From Temnopleurus reevesii (taxonomy: Eukaryota > Echinodermata > Echinoidea > Temnopleuroida > Temnopleuridae), in assembly GCA_036244855.1 (NCBI GenBank), contig BQKZ01000936.1, positions 1 through 64,000 of the forward strand: DNA of 64,000 nucleotides, read 5' to 3'. The notes under the pieces were generated by a model that saw only the letters and a list, made by a program, of their open reading frames with translations, was not told the origin of the DNA and ran no database searches. A program made the position numbers and the translations under genes. Shown in pieces: positions 17,601 to 23,600 of the stretch (positions within the stretch are counted from its first letter, which is position 1; each line of letters opens with the position of its first letter).

Positions 17601-20600
17601 CATCACAATAGACTTCTCAATCACATGTTAACTCATGCCTAGTAAATCAAATACCTTCCTACAATCCAAATTGACTTTGACATTCATTTCAACCAACTGC
17701 TTGTGACCAAATTTGAATTACGAGGACAGGTTTTTATTTGTCCAAGGCTTGGCTTTTTGTTCTTCTTTCGACTCTTTTACTCCATTTGGACGTAATTTTA
17801 GCCAGTTTGTTTCTCAATAAAATTAATTCATTCTTGAAATAGTGTAACTTTTAAGATAGTGAGCAATGTGAAATAGAGGGTGAATAGTCAATTCAAGCAT
17901 ACTGAATGCTGATGTGCTATATATCTGTGACGTGTTTGACCTAAAAAGTTGACTTTTTTAATAAATAATCATCTATTGATTTTTATTTATTAATATCTTG
18001 CTCAATATTCATATTCATGAAGAGCAACCCATTGCCTTAAAATGAGCTCTGTCTAATCATGGTTAGTCATCACGTCACAGATAAATCAGTGGGAATTTTG
18101 CTTGAAGTGTGGGATATATATGATAGTTCATTTAAATATTACATGTAAATGCAATGCTTCCTACAAATGTACCTCAAAATATGATCATTGTTTGGACTAA
18201 AAAGGCAGATTTAGGGATTATATAGGGCCTAGTGTACATGAACGATGCAAAGCCACTAAATATTATTAGCCTATCAGAAATAAGAATATTTCAACAAACC
18301 AAATAGCTGAGCTGAATATTTAGCTCTCATTCATGAAAGCATGGCAACCAATACCGAATTTTTACTAAGTCATTTGACAATGCATTTCATCAATATTCCA
18401 GTATGGTTTGCACTCCTGTATATACATGTACACTGTGAACAGAAGGGACAAAGGATTTGGACATAGTAAACAATGTCCATGACAGTATTGACAATACATT
18501 GACGGTAGCTAATGTAGAGACACACAAAAGAAATCTACTTCCATTTTATAGTGCAGAAAAATGTTAAACAGATGTAACACCTTTTAAGTAAAATAAACGG
18601 AAAAGCTTCTTACGCTTTTTTAAATCATGTCGCCACTGTTAAGGCTTGAATGAAGTTCTTTACTTTGTCCATGCTCATAGTGATGGGGTATATTACATAG
18701 CTATGAAAAAAAGAGCGCTGTCTTCCCACTCAGACTCTCCCTGGATCCGACTTTTATGATAACAGCGTTCACTGACAAAAAAAGCAAAATAGCGTTCGAG
18801 ATTGACTCTTCCAATCAATACAAAATATTATGATATTGATCAGAAGTCTGATAAACATCAATAAGCAACATATCATTTCAAACCCTACAGATATTCAATT
18901 GTTCTCATCAAAGTTTTATAGATATACCAGCATTTGGACTTTTGGAACCTGTGGTACTATTTTGTTTTTCAGTCGCCTTCATTTTCAAATGAAGTCACAC
19001 CGAGCGATATTTCACAATGGATAACCTCCATCCCCTACATGGATGACATTTCAATTCTAAAAGATCAAATGCCCCTCTACCCCATCCTCAGCCTCGCCAT
19101 GGCTGTATTGATTGTCTCTCAGTCATCACAATCAAGAGTGGCTTTCAGGGCCTATGCATACAGTGAGTCTGTGAAGGTCTGTGAAGGTCCAAGAGTTAGA
19201 AGATTGAGACACTCTTTTAACTCTTAGACCCCGTTTACATCGCCGGCCTAATTGCGGTACCGGGTCCCACGAAATTGGGCATTTACACCGACGAATCTAG
19301 GCCGGCCTAAATATCCCTGAAAGTATTTTGACAGTTGATGATGTCATTAAATTGGCAACGATCTCTGGAAATTGCCACTGATTTGCCCATTTGTTCAAAT
19401 CTTTAAAAATTCATAACTTTTTTTGTTATTACTTGTCCGATTTTCCTTAAACTTTTTTTTGTTCTCACCAATTTTTTCTGTTTCTGTTAAATAATTATTC
19501 TTTTTGGGTAGACTCTTCTTTTAAGAAGACGAATATAAAGATCGCATTAACATTGCCAAATCAATATCATAATTTTCTCACCCTTAAGACCACCGTTACA
19601 ATTCCTTCAAAAACTTCCCGGTGTTACATGTAGGAATCATATACGAGATAACTGATCGGATAGTGCACAAACAAAAATGGCAATATATAACGTCATACCC
19701 CGCCAGCGAAGAGTAGTTTGAAAATATATACCCTATACTTTCGGTGTGAGCGTGCGCAGAGCATGATACAGGGTATGCATTGTGTGACTACATCACACAC
19801 ATACAGCATTGCTCTATCCTTGGGGAGAGCATGCAGACACACAATGTGACACACAATGCATACCCTGTATCACTNAGTCACACCGAGCGATATTTCACAA
19901 TGGATAACCTCCATCCCCTACATGGATGACCTTTTAATTCTAATAGATCAAATGCCCCCCCCCCCCCCCCTCTTCAGCCTCACCATGGCTGTATTGATTG
20001 TCTCTCTGTTATCACAATCAAGAGTGGCCTTCAGGGCCTACATGTATGCATAATGTGAGTCTGTGAAGGTCTGTGAAGGTCTGTGAAGGTCCATCATACC
20101 AAAGATTTTAAAGATTGAGAAACTCTTTAAACTCTTATAATGTTTGGCGGAGAAATATAAAAACCTTCCAATTTCTATTTACAACAGTTCACTGGCAGCA
20201 ATTTTCTCACCACTGCCCCAGTACAGGTTGCACACTAGTAAATAGATCGCTTGCAATGAATTTCGGGAAGGCGAATAGGTAAATTTGCATAAGAATATAA
20301 CGGTTTAGAATGTCATATTGATAAGAAAATATTGTCTTATTGTATTATATTTGTTAATTATTTTTTCATTCTGGATAATTTCCAAAGTTTTGGGGCTATT
20401 TATGGAATCTTTTATATCCTAAGACCATTTTCAAGATTCATAGTAGGCGTGGTGCTTAATTATTGGTTAGTCTCATAGCAGATTAAGTGCCCCTGAAAAG
20501 TAAATTTTTCAAAAGAGCGTTATATTTCGATCGCTCCTTGTAATTTAATAACAAATCTATAGATAGGTTCTATTTTAATGAATGTCTGATTGGGTGTCAT

Positions 20601-23600
20601 TTTGCTTGTAAGCCTATGGGAGAATATTTACTGGTGTGTATGCTACAAGGCCTGTAAATAACACATTCTCAATACCTGATCTGAAATTCTATTAACATGA
20701 ATCATTTTTTAAAAATTTGATTGCAAGTCCTGTCTTTATGACAATTAGAAATTCAAAAGTTTAAAGATCCATTTTGAAGCTGCCAGTGTTAACCATATAT
20801 ATATGTACTCCTGGGTCCTGTTACATAAAATGCAATTAAACATATGATAACTATCGATCCTAAGACTACATGGCAAAACATGTAAAATAGAGATACAAAT
20901 TAATGGTATTTCTTTTATGTTACAGGACACTGGGGTGGTATTCTGAACTTTATCTTTGGTCTTATCTTTTTTTATCATAGTAACCCCAACAAATGTTTGC
21001 CATTTGCTCTTACTGCGCACTATGGTCTTGTGCGTTTGTCATTTGCGCACTGTAAACCAATCATAAGTACGCAATTAAAGATGATTATGACAATTGAGAC
21101 AAGATTTAACGAGAACACAAAAGATACGTTTTCAGAAACCATCACAGGACATCATACTGAAATGTGTAGAAAATCAAACATTCCTATTCAATTAAGCAGG
21201 ATACAAAAGTGTTTTATTTTAATCATACAATTGCTAAGTACAATAACATTTACAAGATCATTAACACTTGTTAGAAGGTTAAAAAACTGTACAATCTTCC
21301 TTTTAAGTATCAAATAATTTTCTAGAAAAAAAAAATTCAAATTGCTGCAGAGGCAGATTAATATGNGTACCGCAATTGGGCCAGCGAGCGTTTACACCAA
21401 AACTAGGCCGGCCCGAGGCTGGCCCGAGACAACCTCAAGAGGTGGTCCAAAAGTAGGCCGGCATTTGGTACCGCAATTGGGCCAGCGAGCGTTTACATCA
21501 AAAACTAAGCAAACCCGAGGCCGGCCTCAGGCTGGCCTAAAAGTCGGTGTAAACGGGGTCTTATACACTGTTTGGCGGAGAAATATCAAAACCTTCCAAT
21601 TTCTATTCACAACAGTTCACTGGCAGATATTTTTTCACCACTGCCCAATGGCCTGTAAATCACAAATTCTCAATACCTAATGTGAATTTGAACATGAATC
21701 TTTTTTTTAATTTGATTGCAAGTCCTGTCTTTATGACAATTAGAAATTCAAAAGTTGCCAGTGTGAACCATAGTACTCCTGTAGTCTGCCAGAACAGACC
21801 CTTGGGTTTTGTTGTGCGCATACACAGAGAGTGATACAGGGTACATGTATGCATGCATACCTTGTATCATGCTATCAATCCTATAAGACTACATGGCAAA
21901 ACATGTAAAATAGAGATACAAATTAATGGTATCTCTTTTATGTTACAGGACACTGGGGTGGTATTCTGAACTTTATCATTGGTCTTATCTTTTTTATCAT
22001 AGTAACCCCCACAACTGTTTGCCATTTGCTCTTATACTGCGCACTATGGTCTTGTGCGCTTGTCATTTGCGCACTGTAAACCAATCATAAGTACGCAATT
22101 AATAATGGTTATGACAATAGAGACAAGATTTAACGATAACACAAAAGATACGTTTTCAGAATACCATTACATGACATCAAACTGAAATGTGTAAAAAAAT
22201 TAAACATTCCTATTCAATTAAGCAGGATACAAAAGTGTTTTATTTTAATCATACAATTGCAAAGTACAATAACATTTACAAGATCATTAACACTTGTTAG
22301 AAGGTTAAAAAACTGTACAATCTTCCTTTTAAGTATCAAATAATTTTCTAGAAAAAAAAAATTCAAATTGCTGCAGAGGCAGATTAATATGATTCAACCA
22401 ACAACATTTTTGAACAGCACAGTAGGACAAAATTTAATGGGTTGTGCACCCTAATCCTTAGTAAAATAATAAATAACAAAGCTATTATATCTTTTATTCC
22501 ATATACAATAATCATCAAAGGTTAGGCAGACAGATTAAGTCGAGCAGAGACAACATTTCTATACCAAAAACATTTCTATACCAATTCATTCACTGGAAAC
22601 TGAGAACTTGCTTTTGGTTGAGAGCACAAAAAAGAAGGATCCAATTTATAACCCTTTCACGCTTCTCTTAGCATGTCAAATTGAACAAAATTGCTGAAAA
22701 GCATAAATATACATGTACGTTTTCCCATTCAGTCATCCAAATATAGCACATAATCTGCATCTATCGTGTAAAGTTCATGATATAAAATGTAGTACATGTA
22801 GTACAGTTTAATCGAAATGTGGGAAGACAATTAACATTTGGAACAGATTAAACAATCTTTCCCTGCATGGAACCCTTACAGGAAAAATGAATCAAAATTT
22901 AAATCCTTAGAAATGAATCCAAATCTAAAGTCCCATAAATATATTCAAATTCAAAGGGCTGTTTTTACATAAAATACAGAAGTTATCAATTCCTTGGATA
23001 GCAGTTTTGTGTGGGCTTTATTCATATTCAGAACATATGCCTCCATTAGCATTGACCAATGTTCACTATGTAAAAACTATAATGCCCCCCCCCCCCCCCC
23101 CCCCCCCCCCTTTATTGGCAGAGTGAAGTGAAGACCTTTTTTTCATTGCTTGTCAGCTTGCCCACAAAATGTAATGTACTTGAGCTTTTTTCATTGCCAG
23201 CCCAACCGTGTTCGAGAGAAATATGTGAAATATTTGAATACATACTATAGCAGCATTAAACCATTGTTATGTTTCGTGCTTAACAATATCATATTGAGTC
23301 TGCCGTAAACACACTCAATTCTCGCAACCGACAATACCCGATATTAATAGATATCTCACGATATCGTCGATATTGATCCGTTACAGTTGACTAGGGGCCT
23401 TCCGGTTTGGAAAGCTTATACACGTGCCATGGCTATCCTTTTGGATAATTGCCCATTTTTCTTCTTTTAGCACTATCAAAGGTACTTGGTACTATATAAA
23501 CGAAACAAACCTTGGTGTAATGAAAGTTAATATCAGGAAATATTTAACACAAAGTGCAACACAAACATGATTTTTCGATCTAGAACCTTTGCGAAAATGA

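What the first reader, a model, noticed from the sequence alone, without database searches (positions are those of the whole stretch)
18993..22391. Both alleles of one locus assembled in tandem, showing a filled and an empty transposon site
The block 19876-21365 is bounded by single Ns and matches 18993-19226 followed directly by 21561-22391. It has AACTCTTATA without an insert, where the other copy has AACTCTTA, then the element, then TTATA. So a second haplotype contig was placed into a gap inside the transposon of the first. This defines the element's exact ends and a 3-bp TTA duplication, and shows it is polymorphic in the sequenced individual. The haplotypes also differ by an indel of about 420 bp, a C run and a CTGTGAAGGT repeat count (2 against 3).
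Basis: seen in the sequence. Interest (0 to 1): 0.8.

Follow-up and report, generated by a model that had tools for sequence, protein, structure and literature searches.

The report
Misplaced allele shows empty transposon site
A draft genome, probably of a sea urchin, very probably contains both parental versions of one short stretch one after the other by mistake; comparing them shows that one version carries a small jumping-gene relic that the other lacks, which is an ordinary kind of assembly error and an ordinary kind of variation.

Summary
The block 19876-21365, with one N on each side, aligns end to end with the flanks 18993-19226 + 21564-22391 (937 matches, 59 mismatches, 21 gaps). It carries the unoccupied site of a transposon lying at 19227-19874 + 21367-21560. 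New evidence: in 7 of the 8 other copies that contain both parts, these lie 73-80 bp apart (174 bp in the eighth), so the 1,490-bp block stands in a scaffold gap of about 75 bp. The element is a non-autonomous Tourist/PIF-Harbinger-like MITE: TIR GACCCCGTTTACA, 3-bp duplications in 23 of 38 copies, C|TWW|G-type target. No transposase source was found (8 of 46 matches inspected). The ~420-bp indel is a second transposon (418 bp, TACA duplications) present only in the block, so the two alleles carry reciprocal insertions. Duplicated single-N joins occur elsewhere in the assembly. This is a known artefact exposing ordinary insertion polymorphism. Without reads, a true tandem duplication is improbable but not excluded.

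The parts
18993..19226 (+). Left flank of the occupied allele (A), ending in target duplication TTA (19224-19226)
   Evidence: Aligns to the block's first ~260 bases
19227..19874 (+). Left 648 bp of the transposon in allele A, starting with TIR GACCCCGTTTACA
   Evidence: its first 333 bp match dispersed copies at up to 96% identity; paired copies
19764..19872 (.). Perfect 23-bp inverted repeat (19764-19786 / 19850-19872) inside the element, ending 2 bases before the end of the contig; a plausible reason for the contig break (inference)
19875..19875 (.). Single N: join between an allele A contig and the allele B contig, judged artificial
19876..21365 (+). Allele B contig without the transposon of 19227-21560, placed inside the gap in allele A's transposon
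20226..20643 (+). Second transposon (418 bp, MITE-like, starting GGTTGCACAC), present only in allele B, flanked by TACA (20222-20225 and 20644-20647)
   Evidence: Dispersed repeat; 4-bp duplication exact here and in 5 of 6 other copies examined
21366..21366 (.). Single N: join back to allele A, judged artificial
21367..21560 (+). Right 194 bp of the transposon in allele A, ending with TIR TGTAAACGGGGTC
21561..22391 (+). Right flank of the occupied allele, starting with the second TTA (21561-21563)
   Evidence: last 130 bases identical to the end of the block

Best explanation
The scaffold carries both alleles of one locus from a highly heterozygous diploid animal. The assembler merged the nearly identical outer flanks but built two versions of the divergent middle. 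Allele A broke into two contigs inside a roughly 920-bp transposon copy, next to a perfect inverted repeat. The scaffolder placed the short allele B contig (19876-21365) into that gap of about 75 bp, joining it with single Ns. Allele B is the unoccupied site of that transposon, which inserted by cut-and-paste, duplicating TTA and moved by a transposase encoded elsewhere. Allele B in turn carries a different 418-bp transposon, with TACA duplication, that allele A lacks. Shown: the alignment, the unoccupied site, the duplications, the copy families and the spacing in other copies. Inferred: that A and B are alleles of one animal, the scaffolding mechanism, and the mode of transposition.
For: End-to-end alignment with 5.9% mismatches, and identical 55 and 130 bases at the two ends, as expected where merged homozygous sequence begins. 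In 8 other copies with both parts the distance is 73-80 bp in seven and 174 bp in one, against 1,492 here. The block, apart from its embedded repeat, matched only this locus (40 of 797 candidates scored), and the right flank is single-copy. Both junctions are Ns, so no contig crosses them. Elsewhere C8649:13068-14248, also bounded by single Ns, repeats C8649:10362-11537 at 96.8%. In one search, 4 of 22 single-N joins (3 of 19 without the window's three) have an adjoining repeat across the N, against 8 of 344 random breakpoints (Fisher p 0.004 and 0.015). The pattern is the 'duplicated contained contig' of Kelley and Salzberg (PMC2864568, passages and section 14). A heterozygosity of 4.5% is reported for the urchin Echinometra sp. 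EZ (PMC7594579, passages).
Against: No reads, coverage or mate pairs could be examined. 59 mismatches plus 21 gaps in ~1 kb is on the high side for alleles. 18 of 22 single-N joins showed no adjoining repeat under the strict test, and the window's own left junction is among them (82% identity, below the cut-off). The joined flanks of two other copies of the family gave no match across the whole junction (0 of 2; only 40 of 350 and 40 of 241 candidates were scored).
Confidence: 0.93

Rival explanations
1. A true tandem or nested duplication: a second copy of the locus was inserted into the transposon copy on the same chromosome.
For: The order as assembled; 5.9% mismatches and 21 gaps are compatible with an old duplication.
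Against: Both junctions are single Ns. The duplicate would have had to land within ~75 bp of a transposon that lies inside its own source region. The block's ends coincide with identical stretches on both sides. The same kind of join is seen elsewhere in the assembly.
Confidence: 0.04
2. The block comes from a second individual or an out-of-place paralogous contig, not from the other allele of the same animal.
For: Nothing in the sequence says how many animals were pooled.
Against: No other locus with these flanks was found in the assembly (40 of 797 candidates scored; for the right flank), and the match covers the block on both sides of the insertion. If animals were pooled, the insertion is still a polymorphism, but possibly between animals.
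Confidence: 0.03

Closest known systems
Mis-assembled duplicated contained contig / false segmental duplication (Kelley and Salzberg 2010, PMC2864568; passages and section 14 seen)
   Same: A short contig of the second haplotype lies beside the first, aligns in its entirety, and ends where homozygous flanks were merged
   Different: Here the first haplotype is itself broken inside a transposon and the second was placed in that gap; identity and coverage are below the paper's cut-offs (95% and 93%) because of insertions and high divergence
Tourist-like MITEs of the PIF/Harbinger (PHIS) superfamily
   Same: Short, no transposase gene seen, TIR matching G(N)5GTT, 3-bp duplications mostly TTA/TAT/TAA, C|TWW|G-type target
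   Different: Duplications are looser than strict TWA; no transposase source with the same ends was found among the 8 of 46 matches inspected
NuwaII group of PHIS elements (target C|TNA|G; PMC4482050, passages and section 8 seen)
   Same: Preference for C before and G after the duplicated triplet
   Different: TIR begins GA rather than the usual GG; the third base of the triplet is T in 7 of 23 copies

Membership tests
False duplication by separated haplotypes | Contained contig aligns over its whole length to a neighbouring region | tested here: met
   allowing for the two transposon insertions; 94.1% identity in aligned columns, which is below the 95% cut-off used in PMC2864568
False duplication by separated haplotypes | Contig boundaries (gaps) at both junctions | tested here: met
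   Single Ns at 19875 and 21366
False duplication by separated haplotypes | Mate pairs and read depth consistent with one locus | not testable with these tools
   No reads available
PIF/Harbinger (Tourist MITE) | 3-bp target duplication TWA | tested here: inconclusive
   3-bp duplication in 23 of 38 copies, the window's included (shuffled mean 7.2, maximum 16 in 2000 shuffles); 14 of the 23 are TTA/TAA, the rest TAT 5, and ATT, TGA, ATA, TTT one each
PIF/Harbinger (Tourist MITE) | TIR with motif G(N)5GTT | tested here: met
   GACCCCGTTTACA; motif as stated for Medicago elements in PMC2213677 (passages)
PIF/Harbinger (Tourist MITE) | Palindromic target around TTA (CWCTTAGWG, recalled; C|TNA|G for NuwaII in PMC4482050) | tested here: met
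   Mean 5.78 of 9 positions matched over 23 copies, against a control mean of 4.16 and maximum 4.96 in 5000 draws matched for the central triplet; single copies score 4 to 8
PIF/Harbinger (Tourist MITE) | Mobilised by a DDE (PF13359) transposase from an element with the same ends | tested here: inconclusive
   46 PF13359 match rows in the genome; 8 of the 46 inspected. One (L079, C9693) has end-like sequences at 2 and 3 mismatches on either side of the transposase match but no 3-bp duplication; the number of such partial matches is about what chance gives by my hand estimate

The most novel reading that the evidence does not exclude
The assembly may hold many more such hidden allele pairs. Its single-N joins could then serve as a ready catalogue of occupied and unoccupied transposon sites, showing that the GACCCCGTTTACA family and the GGTTGCACAC family were both moving within the age of the present alleles. 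The mismatched vacant site of the second element in allele A might even be an excision scar.
Probability: 0.25. Interest if true: 0.3.

Novelty: new member of a known kind. Interest (0 to 1): 0.15.

Why it matters
It warns that this stretch should not be read as a tandem duplication. It also gives the boundaries of two MITE families and an occupied/unoccupied pair for the first (an approximate one for the second) in a probable sea urchin. Whether these families are already catalogued in repeat libraries was not tested. The wider use, mining single-N joins for insertion polymorphism, is practical rather than conceptually new.

Tried and rejected
A transposase source for the element: the first 8 of 46 PF13359 match rows were inspected for GACCCCGTTTACA ends in stretches of 4.3-5.0 kb. 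There were 9 partial matches at up to 3 mismatches in all, against about 10 expected by my own hand estimate (no call). One locus, L079, has such sequences on both sides of the transposase match (2 and 3 mismatches), but the three bases outside them differ, so I did not count it. Unoccupied sites of two other copies: no match across the whole junction among the candidates scored; the left and right flanks are themselves repeats. Organism by COX1: no match in the assembly. An exon-like ORF of the window gave no homologue. A PF13359 protein from the same genome has a Lytechinus pictus protein as best hit at 81% identity, hence 'probably a sea urchin'. The size (558 Mb, 10,433 contigs) resembles HpulGenome_v1 (568.9 Mb, 16,251 scaffolds; PMC11457506 passages), but that assembly has 16.4% N, against 6.3% in the stretches fetched here and about 1% in the window; identity with that species was not tested. 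Structured RNA: no Rfam match at gathering score in 18500-23000. The string CWCTTAGWG was found in no held paper, so that consensus is recalled. A search with four terms on PIF-Harbinger target preference found no paper. An earlier count said '8 of 9 copies'; the correct count is 7 of 8.

Full report
What is there. The window has single Ns at 19875, 21366 and 52212 and one long gap at 57955-58568. Between the first two lies a 1,490-bp block. Aligned globally to the sequence left of the element (18993-19226) joined to the sequence right of it (from 21564, one TTA removed, to 22391), it gives 937 identical and 59 mismatched columns (5.9%) and 21 gaps. The first 55 and last 130 bases are identical, and 50 base-shuffled blocks gave no match in the window at E <= 1e-3. 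At the insertion point the A copy reads AACTC-TTA, GACCCCGTTTACA...TGTAAACGGGGTC, TTA-TACAC; the block reads AACTC-TTA-TAATG.

Test of the gap hypothesis. If the block is foreign to the element, other copies should have the element's left 648 bp and right 194 bp close together. Of 36 paired copies examined (the window's own copy and L058 were not among them), 8 contain both parts to their inner ends. The distance is 73 bp in five, 79 and 80 bp in two, and 174 bp in one. The other 28 lack the inner end of one or both parts, so no distance was taken. The 36 copies range from 280 to 1,123 bp. So the block and its two Ns occupy a true gap of about 75 bp. A perfect 23-bp inverted repeat ends two bases before the gap, and the right part contains a repeat spaced 101 bp; either may have broken the contig (inference).

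Single locus. In the 558-Mb assembly (10,433 contigs) the block outside its embedded repeat matched only C936, the window's contig (40 of 797 candidates were scored). The 600 bp right of 22391 gave a single match, themselves. The left flank search did not complete.

An assembly habit. Single-N joins in the fetched stretches, freed of redundancy, and in the window were tested for a repeat of at least 100 bp and 85% identity that adjoins the N. Joins with under 300 bp on a side were left out. The result is 4 of 22 joins (3 of 19 without the window's three) against 8 of 344 random breakpoints in the same sequences, the window included (one-sided Fisher p 0.004 and 0.015). The window's left junction itself counts as a miss, because its match is 82% identical. 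The stretches were fetched because they carry transposon copies, so they are not a random sample. C8649:13068-14248, bounded by single Ns at both ends, repeats C8649:10362-11537 at 96.8% and stops 15 bases into another copy of the same transposon. Kelley and Salzberg describe such duplicated contained contigs as mis-assembled haplotypes (PMC2864568; passages, section 14). Echinometra sp. EZ has 4.5% heterozygosity (PMC7594579, passages), of the same order as the 5.9% here.

The element. Of 45 TIR pairs listed, 5 were copies fetched twice and 2 were alternative pairings; 38 distinct copies remained, the window's included. A perfect 3-bp duplication flanks 23 of the 38 (shuffled mean 7.2, maximum 16 in 2000): TTA 10, TAT 5, TAA 4, and one each of ATT, TGA, ATA, TTT. 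No copy has a longer exact duplication (4 to 8 bp tested). For the C8649 copy (ATT), three repeat copies elsewhere in the fetched sequence (in L004, L052, L043) run straight through the target with a single ATT, an independent confirmation of ends and duplication. In the 23, C precedes and G follows the triplet in 14 each. The fit to the PIF target CWCTTAGWG (recalled; not found in held papers) is 5.78 of 9 positions on average, against a control mean of 4.16 and maximum of 4.96 in 5000 draws from the window with the same central triplets. PMC4482050 gives TWA for PIF/Harbinger and C|TNA|G for NuwaII (passages, section 8). The TIR fits G(N)5GTT of PMC2213677 (passages). No ORF of 100 aa lies wholly within the element parts; one listed ORF (21342-21680) runs across the N. 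So this is a non-autonomous, Tourist/PIF-Harbinger-like element. The exact 15-base end GACCCCGTTTACACC occurs 123 times in the genome, its backward-read control 0 times. The genome has 46 PF13359 match rows; none of the 8 inspected has these ends with a 3-bp duplication, one having an imperfect pair without it. The superfamily placement therefore rests on ends and targets alone.

The second element. Block positions 20226-20643 (418 bp) belong to another dispersed family. It starts GGTTGCACAC and is flanked by TACA on both sides; 5 of 6 other copies examined also have exact 4-bp duplications. Allele A lacks it, but the vacant stretch in A (CACTGCCCAATGGCCTG) is not exactly B without the element (CACTGCCCCAGTACAAGGCCTG), so a later small deletion or an excision scar is possible. 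The alleles thus carry reciprocal insertions: A has the Harbinger-like copy, B the second one.

Age. The window copy's left 333 bp are at most 96% identical to any other of the scored copies (40 of 2751 candidates), a divergence close to that between the two alleles (5.9%). A copy that inserted during the life of the present alleles would look like this (inference).

Limits. No reads, depth or mate pairs could be seen; the number of animals sequenced is unknown; the organism is probably a sea urchin (best hit of a transposase from the same genome: Lytechinus pictus, 81%) but was not named. Two other copies tested for an unoccupied allele gave none among the candidates scored, and of 23 other copies whose joined flanks were compared with the fetched stretches, only the C8649 copy gave a clean uninterrupted target, in repeats rather than an allele; L008 gave weak matches (65.9-77.4%) in a local repeat.

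Noticed in passing
20226-20643: A second MITE-like transposon, present only in allele B, with 4-bp TACA duplications; its vacant counterpart in allele A differs by a few bases, possibly an excision scar.
   Followed up: partly
L004 + L072 (C8649:10065-16500): A second block bounded by single Ns (C8649:13068-14248) repeats C8649:10362-11537 at 96.8% and ends 15 bases into another copy of the same transposon.
   Followed up: partly
L052 3726-3866, L043 1910-2088, L004 2743-2908: Copies of a dispersed repeat that show the uninterrupted target (single ATT) of the C8649 insertion of the same transposon family.
   Followed up: partly
21767-21880: About 100 bp of allele A that hardly align with allele B; contains GATACAGGGTA...TACCTTGTATC, resembling the inverted repeat inside the element at 19764-19872.
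   Followed up: no
52212: Another single N, between ordinary sequence and a run of 18 G; no adjoining repeat across it was found.
   Followed up: partly
52497-53109: Inverted repeat with arms of about 225 bp, 86.7% identical, perhaps another transposon.
   Followed up: no
44742-45101 and 49167-49550, minus strand: Exon-like ORFs with an immunoglobulin I-set domain (49167-49550) and a below-cut-off fibronectin III match (44742-45101): perhaps a cell-surface receptor gene.
   Followed up: no
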